Of a stretch of DNA of 57,547 nt, positions 1 to 8,688 are shown one piece after another. The translations under genes and the position numbers were made by a program. Positions within the stretch are counted from its first letter, which is position 1. The number at the start of each line of letters is the position of its first letter. The notes under the pieces are model-generated. The model searched no databases and was not told where the DNA came from. It saw nothing but the letters and a program-made list of their open reading frames with translations. The DNA is from Desulfuromonadales bacterium (GTDB lineage: Bacteria > Desulfobacterota > Desulfuromonadia > Desulfuromonadales > JAHYIW01), in contig JARGFI010000012.1 of the NCBI GenBank assembly GCA_029210745.1, positions 1-57,547 on the forward strand, given 5' to 3'.

Positions 1-406
1 CCATGTGAGGCGCTACAAGAAGCGCCCCATCTACTGGTTGTTCTCCAGTCCCAAGGGCAGTTTCAATGCGTTGATCTACATGCATCGCTACCGCCCGGAT
101 ACGGTCAGCGTGGTGCTCAACGATTACCTGCGCGAGTTCCGCACCAAGCTCACCTCCCACAAGAACCATCTGGAGGCGGTCAGTATCAGCGCCAGCAGCA
201 GCCAGAGTGATAAGACCAAGGCCCTGAAAGAAATCGAGAAGATCACCAAGATGATCGCCGAGATGGAGGAGTACGAGCGCGAAGTGCTTTACCCGCTGGC
301 CACCGAGCAGGTGGAGATCGACCTCGACGACGGCGTGAAGGTCAACTACCCCAAACTCGGCGCGGCCTTGAAGAAGATCGTCGGCCTGGATGCAAAGGAG
401 GATTGA
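1..406 (+). CDS. pglX: BREX adenine-specific DNA methyltransferase PglX, C-terminal end (partial)
   Basis: Only the last ~134 codons are present; the frame is open to the left edge, so the GTG at position 5 is not a real start. The segment carries the block typical of the PglX C-terminus (RRYKKRPIYWLFSSPKGSF, then LIYMHRYRPDTVSVVLNDYL) followed by a helical, charged stretch. In BREX, PglX is the m6A methyltransferase that marks host DNA and takes part in phage exclusion. The catalytic domain lies outside the window. Identity is supported by the pglZ and brxL genes downstream. The next gene starts 1 base after the stop. Confidence 0.9.
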   Translation, partial: HVRRYKKRPIYWLFSSPKGSFNALIYMHRYRPDTVSVVLNDYLREFRTKLTSHKNHLEAVSISASSSQSDKTKALKEIEKITKMIAEMEEYEREVLYPLATEQVEIDLDDGVKVNYPKLGAALKKIVGLDAKED

Positions 407-407
407 C

Positions 408-1685
408 ATGCATATTCAAAAACTTAATTTGATCGCTTATCGAGGGGCCAAAAATCTAAGCCTGGAATTACACCCTCAATTGAACGTTTTTGTTGGGATG
501 AATGGTTCAGGGAAATCGACTACTTTAGATGCGACTGCGATATTGCTTTCATGGTTTGCCAATAGAATTAAACATGCAAGCTCTTCAGGGAGGCCAATTG
601 CAGAGACCGATATAAAAAATGACGCCCCGATGGCCATGCTTGAAACAACTTGTAGTTTTGTAGATCGTTCGTTCACTTGGAATATTATCAAAATTCGCAA
701 AGGATACGTAAAAAAAGATAATTCTTCAATACTAGTTCAATTGACAGAAATTATTAAAGTTATTCAACTTGATATTTCTGAAAATAATGGGAATGTCAAT
801 CTCCCATTGTTAGCATATTATCCCGTCAATAGAGCAGTACTCGATATTCCTCTCCGAATACGAGAACGACACCGTTTCGATCTTCTTTCAGCTTACGATG
901 GGTCCTTAACGAGCGGTGCTAATTTTAGAACTTTTTTTGAATGGTTCCGAGAGCGGGAGGATTTGGAAAATGAGAATAGAAGATATGTGAACGATCTTAT
1001 TAAGCCTGAAGATTTTCAGTTTCCAGATCCTCAGCTTGAGGCAGTGCGAACCGCTCTAAATCAGTTTTTGCCGGAATTTTCCGACCTAACTGTACGGCGC
1101 AATCCCCTGCGCATGGAGGTGAAAAAAAACAACAAACGGCTGTCGGTCAATCAACTCTCCGACGGGGAAAAATGCCTGATGGCGATGGTCGGTGATTTGG
1201 CTCGGCGCATGGCGATTGCCAACCCTATGCGCAGAAATCCATTGGAGGGTGATGGGATTATCCTTATTGATGAAATCGACCTGCATCTTCACCCAAAATG
1301 GCAGCGTATGGTCATACCTAAGTTCATGGAGATATTTCCCAATTGCCAATTTCTGGTTTCAACACACTCCCCGCATGTCATTACGCATGTGCAACCTGAA
1401 AATCTGTTCCTCCTTAGGATGTCTGAAGAGGGGCTCACGTCACTTCGCCCTTCGGAGTCCTACGGAAAAACGGTTGAACGAGTGCTGGAGGATTTAATGG
1501 GCCTAGAAACGACACGACCGGATGATGTGAATGATTCGTTCCGGCAGATCTATGAGCAGATTGATGACGGCGCTCTCGAAAATGCTAAAAAATCTATTGG
1601 CGAACTGGAGGATTTAATCGGTGAAGACCCAGACCTGGCTAAGGCCGCGGTGCTGATCAAGCGCAAGGAGTTGATCGGCAAATGA
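408..1685 (+). CDS. AAA family ATPase, PtuA-like (Septu-type defence)
   Basis: A 425-residue SMC/RecF-like ATPase. Seen: Walker A GMNGSGKST near residue 35, an ABC-like signature (QLSDGEKCLM) near residue 250, Walker B ILIDEIDLHLHP near 285, and a switch histidine in STHSPHVIT near 320. It has no long coiled coil. ATG 408 was chosen over ATG 390 because AAAGGAGG (393-400) lies directly upstream. The stop overlaps the next gene by 4 bases (ATGA). Families with this ATPase plus a TIGR02646 HNH partner include Septu (PtuA/PtuB) and retron-associated effectors; no retron reverse transcriptase is seen here. Role in anti-phage defence is inferred. The first ~670 bases are AT-rich compared with the rest of the gene and with the BREX genes. 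Confidence 0.8.
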   Translation: MHIQKLNLIAYRGAKNLSLELHPQLNVFVGMNGSGKSTTLDATAILLSWFANRIKHASSSGRPIAETDIKNDAPMAMLETTCSFVDRSFTWNIIKIRKGYVKKDNSSILVQLTEIIKVIQLDISENNGNVNLPLLAYYPVNRAVLDIPLRIRERHRFDLLSAYDGSLTSGANFRTFFEWFREREDLENENRRYVNDLIKPEDFQFPDPQLEAVRTALNQFLPEFSDLTVRRNPLRMEVKKNNKRLSVNQLSDGEKCLMAMVGDLARRMAIANPMRRNPLEGDGIILIDEIDLHLHPKWQRMVIPKFMEIFPNCQFLVSTHSPHVITHVQPENLFLLRMSEEGLTSLRPSESYGKTVERVLEDLMGLETTRPDDVNDSFRQIYEQIDDGALENAKKSIGELEDLIGEDPDLAKAAVLIKRKELIGK

Positions 1686-2317
1686 AGCATATTCTGAAGG
1701 GGGCTGAGCCCCAGGTCTTTACCAACTGGAAATCGCTCGCCAACGAGGATTGGCAACCAACTTACTCAGTTTTGAGCGGGGATACCAAAAGAGTCGTCAA
1801 AGAAGCCTTGATGGCTGAACAGTGTCATATATGCTGCTACTGTGAGCGACGGCTTTCAGAGGACGATTCCCATATCGAACATTTTCGGCCACAGAGTGAT
1901 CCTGTGGTTGATCCGCTTGATTTTGGCAATCTACTCTGCTCTTGCCAGGTCCAAGTCAAGAAAGGCGAACCTCGCCACTGTGGCAACCTTAAGGAAGACT
2001 GGTTCGATCCTGATTTGTTAGTCTCACCGGTTGATTCCAGCTGCGAAGAGCGGTTCGTTTTTGAAGGCGATGGGTTGATCAAACCTGCTGCTGAGCAAGA
2101 TGCGGCAGCAGCTGAGACCATAAAAAAACTGGGTCTTGATATCCCGAAGCTTAATTCCCTTCGAAGAAAAGTCATCGAACCATTTCTGGATGACAGGCTA
2201 TCGAATGAGGAGTTTCAAGCGTTTGTCTCGGGTTATCTAGACAAAGATACAGCAGGGCGTTTTGGAGAGTTCTGGACCACTATTCGTTACCTGTTCGGAG
2301 GCATTGTTGCCGCATGA
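1682..2317 (+). CDS. HNH endonuclease, PtuB-like (TIGR02646 type)
   Basis: A 211-residue protein with the features of the TIGR02646 / PtuB HNH family: a CCYCERRL zinc-binding pair near residues 50-57, the catalytic-type HIEHFRP motif near 65, a conserved NLLCSC segment, and the closing HCGNLKEDW motif near 100. The C-terminal half is helical with no recognised motif. In Septu systems the PtuB nuclease acts together with the PtuA ATPase to cut nucleic acid. The start overlaps the ATPase stop by 4 bases and its own stop overlaps the pglZ start by 4 bases, so the pair is translationally coupled into the BREX operon. Activity is inferred from family, not shown. Confidence 0.82.
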   Translation: MKHILKGAEPQVFTNWKSLANEDWQPTYSVLSGDTKRVVKEALMAEQCHICCYCERRLSEDDSHIEHFRPQSDPVVDPLDFGNLLCSCQVQVKKGEPRHCGNLKEDWFDPDLLVSPVDSSCEERFVFEGDGLIKPAAEQDAAAAETIKKLGLDIPKLNSLRRKVIEPFLDDRLSNEEFQAFVSGYLDKDTAGRFGEFWTTIRYLFGGIVAA

Positions 2318-4878
2318 ACGAACGCATTGCCCAGGCCCTGACCAAACTCTTCGACCGGCACCGGATCGTCTTCTGGTACGACGCCAAGCAGGAGTTGCGC
2401 GACGATTTCGAGGCGCTTCAGCTTCCCGGCGTAGAGAAGCTGGAACTGATCAACAACGAGTACGGCATTAAGTACAAGCTCCTGCGCGAGCAACCGGAAC
2501 AGAAATTCCTGCTCTACCGTGAAGGCCCAGAGCCCCCGCATCTGGATAACTGGCTGCTGGATGTACAACTGGCCCATGGCGAGTTCCGCACCGACCAGGT
2601 GGCCATCTGGCTGTCCGAACTGGAGCTCAGCCTGGAGTTCACGGATGTGGTGCAAGCCCATGCGGAGTTCTTCCAGGCGATCAAGCGCAAGGACGCCCTC
2701 AAGAAGCTGCTGAAAGCGGACGACACCGCCGGACAGATTCGCCTGAAGATGCTGGCGGTATGCACCGGCAGCGAGCCGCGCATGGATGCGGTGGTGGAAA
2801 ACCTGCTGCAGGAGCTGGCCGACAGCGAACCACGAATAGACACGAATGAACACGAAAGTGGAGAGCGATTCAAGCTTATCAAAAAGTTTGGACTGGATGC
2901 CTATTTCTGGGAACAGATGAAACGGTGCTATGGTTATGAATCTGCGGAACCAAGTATCCGTGACTTCGCTGTCACTCTTTTCAAGCACTGCTATTTCCAG
3001 AACTTCGAAAACCAGAAAAACATTCGTGTCAATTCGTGTTCATTCGTGGTTCCAACCCTGACCGGCGATGCCATGGTGTTTCTCAAGCGCTGGAAAGACA
3101 GCCGTCAGTTCGAAGGCGGCTTCGAGACCCTCTCGGGAGAATGCGCCGAGGTCCTCGGGATTGAGCAGGATCTGGCCAAGCGGGATTTCCGGGAGTTGAT
3201 CGAGTTGGATTACTTCCGCCTGATTGACCAGAAGATCATCAGCGACTTGGTGCGGGCGGTGGCATCCCGCACGGCCTCCAGCGGTGACGTGGCGATCTGG
3301 GTTCGCCAGCGGCGACAAGGCCACTGGTATCGCGAATACCGGCATCTGTACGAGGCGGTCGATTACGCCGCCCAGTTTACCCACGCACTGGGCGAGGCCA
3401 AGCTATCCATGGACAGCCTGGCCGAAGGCGTGCAGCGCTACAGCCGCATCTGGTATCAGCTCGATCAGCTTTACCGCAAGTTTACCTACCATGTGCGCAT
3501 GTCGGGACAGGCGTCGCTGATGGGCAGCCTGACCGATCAGGTCGAAAACCTCTACTCCAACAACTACCTGCTGAAGCTGGGCGACCGCTTCCAGACCTTT
3601 GTGGATGCGGCATCAAAATGGGAAGCCTTCCCCGTGCGCAAGCAGAAGGAGTTTTTCGAGCACTGGGTCCGGCCGTTCCTGCGCAAGGACAACAAGGTCT
3701 GCGTGATCATCTCCGATGCCATGCGCTACGAGATCGGCGATGAACTGCTGAGCCTGATCCGCCAGGAGGATCGTTACAGCGCCGAACTGGAACCGGTGCT
3801 TTCGATGCTGCCCAGCTACACCCAGCTTGGCATGGCGGCGCTGTTGCCCAACAAGGAGCTGGCGATTGCCGACAACGAGACCGGCACCGTGCTGGTGGAT
3901 GGGCAAAGCTCCCAGGGTAGGGTTAATCGCACCAAGATCCTGCAAGCGGCCCTGAATGGCCGTGGTGAAGCCATTACCGCCGAAGAGTTTATGCAGCTGG
4001 ATCGGGATGGTAGCCGCGAACTGCTGAAAAGTAACGATGTGCTCTACATCTACCACAATCGCATTGACCATACTGGCGATAAGATGCATTCGGAGGGGCT
4101 AGCCTTTGAAGCCGCTGAGCAAACCCTGGGCGATATCGTCAGACTGGTGAAGAAACTGACCGCAGCGAATGCCAACAATATTCTTGTTACCGCCGATCAT
4201 GGTTTCATCTACCAACATCGACCGCTGGACGAGAGCGACTTTGCCAGTGTCGAGGCCAAGGGCGAGGTGATGCTTTACCGTGACAGGCGTTTCGTGCTCG
4301 GCAAGGGGCTTGATGAGTCAGCCAGCCTGCACAGTTTCTCGTCTGAACAACTGGGTCTTTCCGGAGAGGTCGAAGTCCAGATTCCCAAGTCGATCAACCG
4401 CCTGCGCCTGAAGGGCTCCGGCAGCCGCTTTGTGCATGGCGGTGCGTCGCTGCAAGAGGTGGTGATCCCGGTGCTCAAGATCAACAAGAAGCGCCAGAGC
4501 GATGTCACCGCCGTCGAGGTGGATATCCTGCGCGGAGCCAGCTCGGTGATTACCTCCGGGCAACTGGCGGTGACGATGTATCAGGCCGGACCGGTGACGG
4601 ACAAGATCCAGCCGCGTGTGCTGCGGGCCGGCATCTACACCGAGGCAGGCGACCTGATCTCCGACAGCCACGACCTGACCTTTGACCTGAGCTCGGACAA
4701 TCCCCGTGAGCGGGAGCTGCAGGTGCGCTTCGTGCTGACCCGCAAGGCCGACGAGGCCAATGGCCAGGAGGTCATTTTACGGCTGGAGGAAAAACACGCC
4801 GGGACTTCACATTACAAGGAATACAAGTCGCTCCGCTACCTGATGCGGCGCTCATTTACCAGCGACTTCGACTTTTAA
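2314..4878 (+). CDS. pglZ: BREX alkaline-phosphatase-like protein PglZ
   Basis: An 854-residue PglZ-family protein. The N-terminus (LTKLFDRHRIVFWYDAKQEL) is typical of BREX-1 PglZ. The alkaline-phosphatase-like core shows metal-site motifs VCVIISDAMRYE near residue 470 and ILVTADHGFIY near residue 627. PglZ is a core BREX component needed for phage exclusion; its exact substrate in BREX is not settled. It starts within the stop of the HNH gene (ATGA) and is followed 14 bases later by brxL. Oddity: two arms of a CACGAAT-rich inverted repeat (2827-2858 and 3021-3052) are translated in frame as linkers at about residues 172-182 and 236-247, flanking a conserved-looking block. Confidence 0.93.
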   Translation: MNERIAQALTKLFDRHRIVFWYDAKQELRDDFEALQLPGVEKLELINNEYGIKYKLLREQPEQKFLLYREGPEPPHLDNWLLDVQLAHGEFRTDQVAIWLSELELSLEFTDVVQAHAEFFQAIKRKDALKKLLKADDTAGQIRLKMLAVCTGSEPRMDAVVENLLQELADSEPRIDTNEHESGERFKLIKKFGLDAYFWEQMKRCYGYESAEPSIRDFAVTLFKHCYFQNFENQKNIRVNSCSFVVPTLTGDAMVFLKRWKDSRQFEGGFETLSGECAEVLGIEQDLAKRDFRELIELDYFRLIDQKIISDLVRAVASRTASSGDVAIWVRQRRQGHWYREYRHLYEAVDYAAQFTHALGEAKLSMDSLAEGVQRYSRIWYQLDQLYRKFTYHVRMSGQASLMGSLTDQVENLYSNNYLLKLGDRFQTFVDAASKWEAFPVRKQKEFFEHWVRPFLRKDNKVCVIISDAMRYEIGDELLSLIRQEDRYSAELEPVLSMLPSYTQLGMAALLPNKELAIADNETGTVLVDGQSSQGRVNRTKILQAALNGRGEAITAEEFMQLDRDGSRELLKSNDVLYIYHNRIDHTGDKMHSEGLAFEAAEQTLGDIVRLVKKLTAANANNILVTADHGFIYQHRPLDESDFASVEAKGEVMLYRDRRFVLGKGLDESASLHSFSSEQLGLSGEVEVQIPKSINRLRLKGSGSRFVHGGASLQEVVIPVLKINKKRQSDVTAVEVDILRGASSVITSGQLAVTMYQAGPVTDKIQPRVLRAGIYTEAGDLISDSHDLTFDLSSDNPRERELQVRFVLTRKADEANGQEVILRLEEKHAGTSHYKEYKSLRYLMRRSFTSDFDF
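2827..3052. repeat. Inverted repeat of CACGAAT units inside pglZ
   Basis: Left arm 2827-2858 and right arm 3021-3052 are imperfect inverted copies (about 27 of 32 positions match). Each arm is itself three copies of a 10-base unit ending in CACGAA(T). The 162 bases between the arms encode what looks like ordinary PglZ sequence. The frame stays open across both arms. The element type is unknown to me. Confidence 0.75.
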
Positions 4879-4892
4879 AGGACGGGTGACCG

Positions 4893-6965
4893 ATGAACGA
4901 ACTTGACCAGAAAATCAACACACACTTCCCGGGACTCGTTGTCCGCAAGGATCTCGTCAAGACGGTCAAGGGCAACGCCATCGTTCCCTCCTACGTATTG
5001 GAATACCTGCTGGGCCAGTATTGCGCCACCAGCGATGAGCCGACCATCCAGACCGGCATCGAGACGGTCAAGGAGATCCTGCGCAAACATTACGTGCATC
5101 GCAACGAGGCGGGTCTGGTTCGCTCGAACATCAAGGAGAAAGGGCGTTACAAGGTCATCGACAAGATTGGCGTGGCTTTGAACGACAAGGCCGACGTCTA
5201 CGAAGCGGAGTTTTCGAACCTCGGCATCAAGAAAGTGCTGGTCGACTCGGGTACGGTCAAGACCCACCCCAAGTTGCTGGTCAGCGGCGTGTGGTGCATT
5301 GCCGACATCGAATATGAATTCACCGAGGACAAGAACGCCAGCCCCTGGATCTTGTCGACCCTCAAGCCCATTCAACTCTCTCAGTTTGATTTTGACAGCT
5401 ACCTTGAAGCCCGCAAACAGCTCACCACCGATGAATGGATCGATTTACTGATACAGAGCATCGGCTTCAACCCCGAGATGTTCGGCAAGCGCAGCAAGTT
5501 GACCCAGTTGATCCGCCTGATCCCGTTTTGCGAGCGCAACTACAACCTGATCGAACTTGGCCCGAAGGGGACCGGCAAATCGCACATCTACTCGGAGTTC
5601 TCGCCTCACGGCATCCTGATCTCCGGCGGCGAGATCACAGTTCCCAAGCTCTTCGTGAACAACTCTTCCGGAAAGATCGGCCTGGTCGGTTACTGGGACT
5701 GTGTTGCCTTCGACGAGTTTGCCGGAAAGCAAAAACGCGTCGACAAGGCCCTGGTCGACATCATGAAGAACTACATGGCCAACAAGTCCTTCTCGCGGGG
5801 CGTCGAGACGCTGGGCGCGGAGGCGTCCATGGTTTTCGTGGGCAACACTCAGCACACCGTGCCCTACATGCTCAAACACTCGGATCTTTTTTGCGAGCTG
5901 CCCGACAAGTTCTACGACTCCGCATTTCTTGACCGTATCCATTTCTATATCCCGGGCTGGGAGGTCGACATCATCCGGGGCGAGATGTTTTCCAACGGCT
6001 ACGGCTTCGTGGTGGACTACCTGGCCGAGATCCTTCGCTCGCTGCGCAATCACGATTACTCGGACCGCTACAAGGAGCACTTCTCCCTCTCCTCCGATAT
6101 CTCGACGCGGGACCGCGATGGCATCAACAAGACGTTCTCCGGCCTGATGAAGATCCTCTTTCCGCATGACGGGGCGACCAAGGAAGAGATCGAGGAACTG
6201 CTGCGGTTCGCGATTGAGGGCCGCAAGCGCGTTAAAGACCAACTGATGCGCATTGATTCCACCTACGGCAACGTCCGCTTTACCTATCAAGACAGTGATG
6301 GCCAGGCCAAGCCTGTCACCACGCTCGAAGAAGAGGAATACCCCGGCTACTACCACAAGACCATCGCCGAGGGCGAAGACGGGGAAATCTTAGAAGCTGC
6401 GCAACCGGGCTCACACCAAGGTCCATCCGAACCACTGGCACCGGCCGAGCCCGCCCTCAAAGAAAAGCACCTCACATTCCAGGAGAACCAGAAGGGCCTC
6501 TCCTTCGATACGCTGCTCGGCCCTTATCTCAAGGGAGCAACTGCGATCACGACCACTGATCCGTACATCCGCCTGTTTTACCAGATGCGCAACTTCATGG
6601 AATTTCTGGAGACGGTGGTCAAGCACAAGGCTCCGGATGAGGAAGTATCCGTGCATCTGGTGACGACGGAAGACGAGTTCAAAGGCGAACAACAAAAGGA
6701 AAACTTCGAGAAGATGAAGGAGTCCGCCAGTGCAGTGGGCGTGAACTTCACCTGGGAGTTCGACGGCACCGGCACGATCCATGCCCGCCACATCGTGACC
6801 GACCACGGCTGGAAAATTTCTCTGGATCGCGGCCTCGATATCTTCCAACACTATGAGATGAACGATGCCTTTACTTTCGCCAATCGGCTTCAGCAGTACC
6901 GCCCATGCAAGGCATTTGAGGTAACGTTCATTAAACACAAGCCGAATGGAACTGAGGGGGAATAA
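4893..6965 (+). CDS. brxL: BREX protein BrxL with MITD1-type C-terminal domain
   Basis: A 690-residue protein. Residues ~1-490 match BrxL: the N-terminal domain (FPGLVVRKDLVKTVKGNAIV), then an AAA+ ATPase core with Walker A GPKGTGKS near residue 224, Walker B CVAFDEFAG near 272, and the NTQHTV segment. BrxL is an AAA+ DNA-binding factor of BREX. A Pro/Ala-rich linker (~505-530) follows. The last ~150 residues do not show the usual Lon-protease end; instead they contain HARHI, GWKI, RGLDIF and YRPC in the spacing of the MITD1 C-terminal phospholipase-D-like domain (MIT_C). Starts after GGACGGGTGACCG; ends the recognisable BREX operon. Confidence 0.9.
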   Translation: MNELDQKINTHFPGLVVRKDLVKTVKGNAIVPSYVLEYLLGQYCATSDEPTIQTGIETVKEILRKHYVHRNEAGLVRSNIKEKGRYKVIDKIGVALNDKADVYEAEFSNLGIKKVLVDSGTVKTHPKLLVSGVWCIADIEYEFTEDKNASPWILSTLKPIQLSQFDFDSYLEARKQLTTDEWIDLLIQSIGFNPEMFGKRSKLTQLIRLIPFCERNYNLIELGPKGTGKSHIYSEFSPHGILISGGEITVPKLFVNNSSGKIGLVGYWDCVAFDEFAGKQKRVDKALVDIMKNYMANKSFSRGVETLGAEASMVFVGNTQHTVPYMLKHSDLFCELPDKFYDSAFLDRIHFYIPGWEVDIIRGEMFSNGYGFVVDYLAEILRSLRNHDYSDRYKEHFSLSSDISTRDRDGINKTFSGLMKILFPHDGATKEEIEELLRFAIEGRKRVKDQLMRIDSTYGNVRFTYQDSDGQAKPVTTLEEEEYPGYYHKTIAEGEDGEILEAAQPGSHQGPSEPLAPAEPALKEKHLTFQENQKGLSFDTLLGPYLKGATAITTTDPYIRLFYQMRNFMEFLETVVKHKAPDEEVSVHLVTTEDEFKGEQQKENFEKMKESASAVGVNFTWEFDGTGTIHARHIVTDHGWKISLDRGLDIFQHYEMNDAFTFANRLQQYRPCKAFEVTFIKHKPNGTEGE

Positions 6966-7855: not shown

Positions 7856-7951
7856 TGGCGGGAGCAGATGGGAATCGAACCCACCGGGGACGGGATACGC
7901 CCCCCACCGGTTTTGAAGACCGGGCGTGGCACCAGATCACGAACTACTCCC
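7856..7951 (-). tRNA. selC: Selenocysteine tRNA, anticodon TCA
   Basis: A 96-base tRNA with encoded CCA (7856-7858). It has the features that set tRNA-Sec apart: an 8-bp acceptor stem (GGGAGTAG with CTGCTCCC), anticodon TCA (plus-strand TGA at 7914-7916) in loop CTTCAAA, a long variable arm (~20 bases, GGGGGGCGT...CCCGTCCCC), and a GGTTCGATTCC T-loop. It decodes in-frame UGA as selenocysteine with SelB. It lies 11 bases downstream of yedF on the same strand. Its 3' end faces the defence island. Confidence 0.96.
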
Positions 7952-7962
7952 GTAAGGAGGAT

Positions 7963-8547
7963 TTAAAGCCGAATCACCCGGCCAGCCTGATGCAGGGTCT
8001 CAACGGTTTCGAGCAGGTTGCCGATCCGGCCGACGGCCAGTTGGTCCTTGATGCCGTAAAATTCCAGACAGAGACCACAAGAGGCGATATCGACACCGTT
8101 GCTGGACAGGGTGTTGAGTGTCGACAGCAGATCGGAACCGGTGACGGTGAGCTTGACTCCGCCATTGACGAACAGGATGGTGTCCGGGTGCGTTGTGGCA
8201 TCAATCAGGGTCATCAGGAAATTTTTCAGCAGAATGTGACCAAGTTCATCGCTGCCGCTGCCGAGGGTTTCGCCGGTAACGAAAAGAACGGTTTTACCCG
8301 GCGCGGCGCTGGTTGCGGTGGCGACGGCGTGGCTGCCGGAACAGGTTAAATGGAGGGTGTAGCTGCCGTTTGTCTCGTCCGTTGCAACCTCGTAACCAAG
8401 GCTTTGCGCGAGTCGACTGACATTCTCACGTGCCGACGAATCGGCGACCAGGACAGTCAGACTGTTCCCCGGTTCAGCCAGGAGCAGCTTGCGGGTTTCG
8501 ATCACGGGGGTGGGGCATTGCCAGGTGCGACAGTCGAGGGTTTTCAT
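7963..8547 (-). CDS. yedF: Selenium metabolism protein YedF (TusA-like + DsrE-like)
   Basis: A 194-residue protein. The N-terminal TusA/SirA-like domain (residues ~1-70) keeps the CPxP motif (QCPTPVIETRKLL) with its candidate selenium/sulfur-carrier cysteine. The C-terminal half (~90-194) is DsrE-like, with VLFVTGETLGSG and a pair of cysteines in ASCGLC. YedF occurs mainly in organisms that use selenium; direct linkage to selC here fits. Start: the ATG at 8547 is used because GAAAGGG sits 6 bases upstream, while the other in-frame ATG (8553) has no proper spacing. The exact biochemical role of YedF is not established. Confidence 0.92.
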   Translation of the reverse strand: MKTLDCRTWQCPTPVIETRKLLLAEPGNSLTVLVADSSARENVSRLAQSLGYEVATDETNGSYTLHLTCSGSHAVATATSAAPGKTVLFVTGETLGSGSDELGHILLKNFLMTLIDATTHPDTILFVNGGVKLTVTGSDLLSTLNTLSSNGVDIASCGLCLEFYGIKDQLAVGRIGNLLETVETLHQAGRVIRL

Positions 8548-8688
8548 TCTCATCCCTTTCTGTAAATCGCGGCCACTATAACGACTGTGATCGCCAAATG
8601 CAAGATTGCAGGAGAAGGGTGGACATAAAAATATTGTCTGTTAAAATACCATAATTAGTAAAAAATAATTAAAGGCTCGGGGGCAGAC

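What the first reader, a model, noticed from the sequence alone, without database searches (positions are those of the whole stretch)
6480..6965. BrxL whose Lon-like C-terminus is replaced by a MITD1-type phospholipase-D-like domain
Seen: after the BrxL AAA+ core and a Pro/Ala-rich linker, the last ~150 residues carry HARHI, GWKI, RGLDIF and YRPC in the order and spacing of the C-terminal domain of the ESCRT-linked protein MITD1. No Lon-type Ser/Lys dyad region or usual BrxL ending is visible. Known: MITD1's C-terminal domain has a PLD-like fold and binds membranes or phosphoinositides. Inferred: this BrxL may act at the membrane or on nucleic acid ends rather than as a Lon-like factor.
Basis: partly seen in the sequence, partly recalled or inferred. 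Interest (0 to 1): 0.75.

Follow-up and report, generated by a model that had tools for sequence, protein, structure and literature searches.

The report
BrxL with a MITD1-like tail domain

Summary
Window 4893-6965 (+) encodes BrxL (690 aa). After the BrxL core, residues 535-681 match Pfam MIT_C (E 6.5e-45) and no Lon-type tail is matched. The predicted domain (pLDDT 92) fits human MITD1 best (Z 22.5), then PLD-superfamily proteins, among them restriction enzymes (SauUSI Z 10.3). The gene ends a type 1 BREX operon, split here over two contigs.

It is not new. PADLOC has a full-length model for this BrxL type. A 2026 survey counts 1030 of 2913 type 1 BREX taxa whose BrxL has an "HKD-DNase" instead of the Lon-like domain, and proposes nuclease activity.

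Added here: (1) BrxL bears MIT_C on three separate core lineages, forced by well-supported branches. (2) The proposed catalytic motif is HxRx4D, never HxK; its Asp is lost in 10 of 111 sequences and in human MITD1, so activity is unproven. (3) Human MITD1 is closest to the MIT_C of one minor BrxL lineage (44% identity); direction unresolved. (4) Rare other carriers exist: a dynamin-family GTPase, a Sel1-repeat protein in a restriction locus, an IF2_N protein.

Best guess: a ring-end domain that binds, possibly cuts, DNA. Membrane tethering remains open.

The parts
4893..6965 (+). brxL, 690 aa, whole gene
   Evidence: ORF; NCBIfam TIGR02688 BrxL 680.9 bits over cut-off 329; PADLOC PDLC02508 covers residues 1-683, 1237.7 bits
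4923..5315 (+). BrxL_N domain, residues 11-141
   Evidence: Pfam PF20442, E 1.7e-48
5349..6281 (+). BrxL ATPase domain, residues 153-463, with P-loop GPKGTGKS at 223-230
   Evidence: Pfam PF13337, E 4.6e-133
6282..6494 (+). Variable linker, residues 464-534, Pro/Ala-rich at its end
   Evidence: No family match; poorly conserved columns in the alignment of 31 relatives
6495..6935 (+). MIT_C (PLD-like) domain, residues 535-681
   Evidence: Pfam PF16565; model pLDDT 92; MITD1 Z 22.5
6780..6845 (+). HxRx4D and GWKI/RGLDIF motifs, residues 630-651
   Evidence: Conservation over 111 sequences
2314..4878 (+). pglZ type A of the same operon
   Evidence: NCBIfam TIGR02687, 1127.6 bits
5..406 (+). End of pglX, cut by the contig edge
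   Evidence: NCBIfam NF033452 positions 1090-1209 of 1210
390..1685 (+). ptuA-like ATPase of a Septu-like pair inside the operon
   Evidence: PADLOC PtuA, E 4.2e-156
1682..2317 (+). ptuB-like HNH protein of the pair
   Evidence: PADLOC PtuB, E 2.5e-89

Best explanation
This is BrxL, the AAA+ ring protein of a type 1 BREX defence system, of the widespread subtype whose Lon-like tail is replaced by a MIT_C domain of the phospholipase-D superfamily (identity: about 0.97 certain). Proposed working: the core assembles with ATP as a ring on invading DNA, as shown for a Lon-tailed BrxL. The MIT_C domains sit at the wide inner end of the ring, where the Lon-like domains otherwise pair two rings tail to tail. 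There they probably pair as other one-motif PLD proteins do, and hold the DNA backbone in a conserved pocket (H630, R632, R646, D649, with D556, Y558, R560, Q564). They may nick or cut it, adding a second nuclease to PglZ. Shown here: sequence, fold, operon and conservation. Inferred: ring position, pairing, DNA as the ligand, and any cutting. The stated confidence is for the mechanism.
For: BrxL_N, ATPase and MIT_C matches. Fold of the tail: MITD1 Z 22.5, then SauUSI 10.3, NgoAVII R 9.4, NucT 9.0, Nuc 8.6, BfiI 8.4. H630 kept in 108 and R632 in 111 of 111 sequences. Operon with pglZ and pglX and brxA, brxB, brxC, pglX start on another contig. PglZ found beside 48 of 49 MIT_C-type brxL with long flanks. 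Ring on DNA and ring pairing by the tail: PMC10164562. Nuclease proposal for this subtype: PMC12839542. MIT_C also in a Sel1-repeat protein beside helicase, methylase and Mrr-type genes.
Against: Lys of the HxK motif is always Arg; Asp is N, S or G in 10 of 111 and Asn in human MITD1. The nearest solved relative is reported as a membrane binder (PMC6015221). Lipid enzymes of the PLD superfamily score as high as its nucleases. In the known BrxL structure the tail lies far from the DNA. No activity can be measured here, and the full-length model was poor.
Confidence: 0.5

Rival explanations
1. Purely structural: MIT_C only pairs two BrxL rings, as the Lon-like tail does, and its pocket has no ligand that matters for restriction.
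For: The Lon-like tail it replaces pairs rings and has no catalytic motif (PMC10164562). Tails have been exchanged between core lineages, as expected if a shared role can be met by unrelated domains.
Against: The most conserved residues are a polar motif cluster kept from bacteria to human, not only hydrophobic surface.
Confidence: 0.25
2. Membrane tether: MIT_C binds membrane lipids as in MITD1 and anchors the BrxL ring at the inner membrane, for example where phage DNA enters.
For: MITD1 is by far the closest solved structure and its domain is reported to bind membranes, which abscission needs (PMC6015221). One bacterial MIT_C is fused to a dynamin-family GTPase.
Against: Only one dynamin fusion was found. 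MIT_C travels nearly always with a DNA-binding ring ATPase in a modification-based defence operon. The MITD1 residues that bind membrane could not be looked up.
Confidence: 0.2
3. Chance similarity or a local assembly or fusion artefact.
For: The window starts at a contig edge inside the operon.
Against: E 6.5e-45. At least 516 relatives were found in genome contigs, and intact fusions occur in many phyla and on plasmids.
Confidence: 0.01

Closest known systems
BrxL-HKD subtype of type 1 BREX (PMC12839542; PADLOC PDLC02508)
   Same: Same core, same kind of tail in place of the Lon-like domain, same operon; this protein matches the PADLOC model over residues 1-683.
   Different: Nothing essential. 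The survey calls the tail an HKD-endoDNase; the tests here show its motif is not strictly kept.
Lon-tailed BrxL (8emc, PMC10164562)
   Same: Residues 3-481 align over the whole core.
   Different: Its last ~200 residues are Lon-like; here they are MIT_C.
Human MITD1 C-terminal domain (4a5z, 2ymb)
   Same: Sequence E 4.7e-17, Z 22.5 with 153 residues at 2.0 A, shared H, R, RGLD and DPYxR.
   Different: MITD1 has an N-terminal MIT domain and no ATPase; Asn replaces Asp in the motif; about 31% identity.
PLD-superfamily nucleases (SauUSI, NgoAVII R, NucT, Nuc, BfiI)
   Same: Fold (Z 8.4-10.3) and, by the motif pattern, the His.
   Different: They are HxK enzymes (own knowledge); here Lys is always Arg; structural alignment shows only 7-13% identity.

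Membership tests
BrxL | BrxL_N and BrxL ATPase domains | tested here: met
   Pfam E 1.7e-48 and 4.6e-133; TIGR02688 over its cut-off
BrxL | last gene of a BREX operon beside pglZ | tested here: met
   pglZ type A at 2314-4878, directly upstream
Lon-tailed BrxL | Lon-like C-terminal domain | tested here: not met
   No Lon_C match, whereas a Lon-tailed relative does match it; TIGR02653 stops at position 472 of 675; PLD-type fold
Type 1 BREX | brxA, brxB, brxC, pglX, pglZ, brxL together | tested here: met
   brxA, brxB, brxC and pglX start on contig C43, pglX end, pglZ and brxL in the window; that the contigs abut is inferred
MIT_C (PF16565) | profile match over the curated cut-off | tested here: met
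   153 bits against 25, full length of profile
MITD1 | N-terminal MIT domain before MIT_C | tested here: not met
   Pfam finds only BrxL_N, BrxL ATPase and MIT_C, apart from a sub-threshold IstB match
MITD1 | binding to membranes | not testable with these tools
   needs a lipid-binding assay
PLD superfamily | PLD fold | tested here: met
   PLD proteins fill the top of the list behind MITD1, Z 8-10
PLD-superfamily HKD enzymes | HxKx4D motif | tested here: not met
   HxRx4D here; Lys absent in all 111 relatives, Asp absent in 10
PLD-superfamily HKD enzymes | phosphodiesterase or nuclease activity | not testable with these tools
   needs an enzyme assay

The most novel reading that the evidence does not exclude
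The membrane-binding domain of the eukaryotic ESCRT cofactor MITD1 was drawn from a BREX defence protein of the Thioflavicoccus/Hymenobacter type, and in BrxL too the domain tethers the DNA-encircling ring to a membrane.
Probability: 0.1. Interest if true: 0.75.

Novelty: new member of a known kind. Interest (0 to 1): 0.35.

Why it matters
BrxL is needed for phage restriction in several BREX systems, yet what its tail does is unknown. BrxL cores carrying either of two unrelated tails are a natural experiment: swapping tails would show whether the tail pairs rings, cuts DNA or binds membrane. The tie to MITD1 also raises a testable question about where an ESCRT cofactor domain came from.

Tried and rejected
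Artefact or chance match: rejected. Lon fold: rejected. Full-length AlphaFold2 model to place the domain in the ring: mean pLDDT 58, not used. Weak MIT_C hits L098-L101 and L120-L122: below the cut-off, mostly ABC transporters, discarded. Phage records hold no match to the MITD1-like type; IMG/VR contigs gave three of the common type. More dynamin-MIT_C fusions: none found. The claim that human MITD1 nests inside bacterial MIT_C is not made: in the unrooted tree human joins the branch between the minor lineage and the rest, and only one eukaryotic sequence was at hand. The MITD1 structure paper (PNAS 2012), the Menshen study (NAR 2025) and Goldfarb 2015 are not held. The zero or near-zero counts for BrxA, BrxB and BrxC in 8 kb flanks say nothing, as these genes lie further upstream.

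Full report
What is there. The ORF at 4893-6965 (+) encodes a 690-residue BrxL. Pfam finds BrxL_N at 11-141, the BrxL ATPase at 153-463 and MIT_C at 535-681 with E 6.5e-45. A PDB sequence search splits the protein the same way: BrxL 8emc for residues 3-481, human MITD1 for 524-679. The bounds of the domain in DNA are 6495-6935.

Fold. An AlphaFold2 model of residues 522-683, made from 36 sequences, has mean pLDDT 92.1 and pTM 0.88. Foldseek and VIA-align put MITD1 first (Z 22.5, rmsd 2.0, 153 residues). Behind it come PLD-superfamily proteins: SauUSI 10.3, NgoAVII R protein 9.4, NucT 9.0, Nuc 8.6, BfiI 8.4, along with lipid enzymes such as phosphatidylserine synthase at 9.7. The fold alone does not tell a nuclease from a lipid enzyme. 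A Lon fold is excluded for this tail.

Operon. The window begins at a contig edge inside pglX. On contig C43 of the same genome lie brxA, brxB, brxC, a Schlafen/AlbA_2-type gene and the first 238 profile positions of pglX, running off that contig's end. In the window follow the pglX end, a Septu-like ptuA-ptuB pair, pglZ type A and brxL. So this is a type 1 BREX system with brxL in its usual last place. No join was made; that the two contigs abut is inferred. Complete relatives with the same order occur on plasmids of Arthrobacter and Hymenobacter.

How common. Of 116 ORFs with MIT_C, 110 also have the BrxL core. In samples, MIT_C passed the cut-off in 7 of 297 genomes of the window's own phylum, 7 of 398 of the phylum of L053 (Advenella, Pseudomonadota) and 18 of 296 of the phylum of L057 (labelled Chlorobiaceae). 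Among BrxL with a readable end, the first sample had 5 MIT_C, 16 other long tails and 4 short ends; the third had about 15, 8 and 2. The other long tails are Lon-like: one matches Lon_C and the 14 used in the tree resemble one another.

Prior art. PMC12839542 (January 2026) reports that 1030 of 2913 type 1 BREX taxa with BrxL have an HKD-endoDNase in place of the Lon-like domain, with Lys replaced by Arg, and proposes DNA degradation; it cites a 2025 study for the first report. PMC12715929 names PF16565 among BREX genes, citing Goldfarb 2015. PADLOC's PDLC02508 covers nearly the whole protein. A search of the held library listed no paper with both BrxL and MITD1. So the finding is a member of a known kind. 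The explicit tie to MITD1 is unremarked in the papers at hand, though Pfam's family name implies it.

Motif test. In 111 bacterial MIT_C sequences H630 is kept in 108, R632 in 111 and D637 in 101 (N 6, S 3, G 1); all three are intact in 98. Among 37 sequences clustered at 80% identity the three are intact in 34. Lysine is never present. R646, G647, L648, D649, D556, Y558, R560, Q564 and R670 are nearly invariant and shared with human MITD1, which has Asn at the Asp position. This weakens the claim that an HRD triad shows a working nuclease: the Asp is dispensable in several lineages. It does support a conserved ligand pocket. Own knowledge: in PLD enzymes His and Lys do the chemistry and Asp is mainly structural, so loss of Asp does not exclude activity.

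Evolution. In trees of the BrxL core, MIT_C-tailed rows need three label changes, all forced by well-supported branches: the main clade (this window), a small clade inside the Lon-tailed group (L179, which is the same gene as L102; Thioflavicoccus; Hymenobacter), and L003/L114, which group with short, type-4-like BrxL. So tails were exchanged repeatedly, by gain or loss; the direction is open. In the MIT_C tree the small clade's domains group with human MITD1 at 100/99, and L102 shares 44% identity with it, against 31% for this window. Human joins between the small clade and the rest, so the root, and thus who gave to whom, is not settled. Several of these branches are long.

Mechanism. PMC10164562 shows for a Lon-tailed BrxL that the core forms rings on DNA, that the tail pairs two rings and lies away from the DNA in a chamber about 80 A wide, and that only loss of the ATPase site fully abolishes restriction. 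By position the MIT_C domains should lie at the same chamber end. One-motif PLD proteins often pair to make one active site (own knowledge), which would fit a ring-pairing role. I take DNA-backbone binding, with possible nicking, as most likely (about 0.5), a purely structural role next (0.25), membrane tethering third (0.2). The dynamin-family fusion of Candidatus Thiodictyon is the best bacterial hint for the membrane reading. The Sel1-repeat protein beside an SNF2-type helicase, Eco57I-type methylase and Mrr-type nuclease is a hint for the DNA reading. No tool here measures activity.

Verdict. Observation confirmed, interpretation partly supported, novelty low. The residual interest lies in the repeated tail exchange and the MITD1 kinship.

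Noticed in passing
window 390-2317: A Septu-like ptuA-ptuB pair sits inside the BREX operon, between pglX and pglZ.
   Followed up: partly
window 7860-8553: A selenocysteine tRNA gene (7860-7951, -) and a TusA/DsrE-type gene (7963-8553, -) lie just downstream of the BREX operon; possibly an insertion site.
   Followed up: no
L222:5640-8483 (Candidatus Thiodictyon syntrophicum plasmid pTs485): A 947-residue protein joins a Dynamin_N GTPase to a C-terminal MIT_C domain; no second example was found.
   Followed up: partly
L188:9113-12310: A 1065-residue protein joins MIT_C to Sel1 repeats, beside an SNF2-type helicase, an Eco57I-type methylase and an Mrr-type nuclease gene: MIT_C in a defence locus without BrxL.
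   Followed up: partly
L189:1995-17592 and L190:98-13069: Two loci from different phyla combine a DUF4007 protein (typical of type 4 BREX) with an Eco57I-type methylase, a BrxC-sized protein, a PglZ-like protein and a BrxL with MIT_C. PMC12839542 describes type 4 BREX as phosphorothioation-based with BrxL lacking a tail, so these look like hybrids.
   Followed up: partly
L223:7452-8501 (Paenarthrobacter plasmid): A 349-residue protein has an IF2_N domain and a C-terminal MIT_C.
   Followed up: no
L102, L219, L220, L221: A minor BrxL lineage whose MIT_C is closer to human MITD1 (44% identity for L102) than to the common BrxL MIT_C.
   Followed up: partly
L007:556-1836: A 427-residue ORF ends in the last two thirds of MIT_C without the BrxL core; its start looks like a RhuM-type protein (not tested); probably a deletion chimera.
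   Followed up: no
L200:12844-13794: A 317-residue protein with an HDRWLITD motif lies downstream of a Lon-tailed brxL; weak match to the MIT_C model made here, none in Pfam.
   Followed up: no
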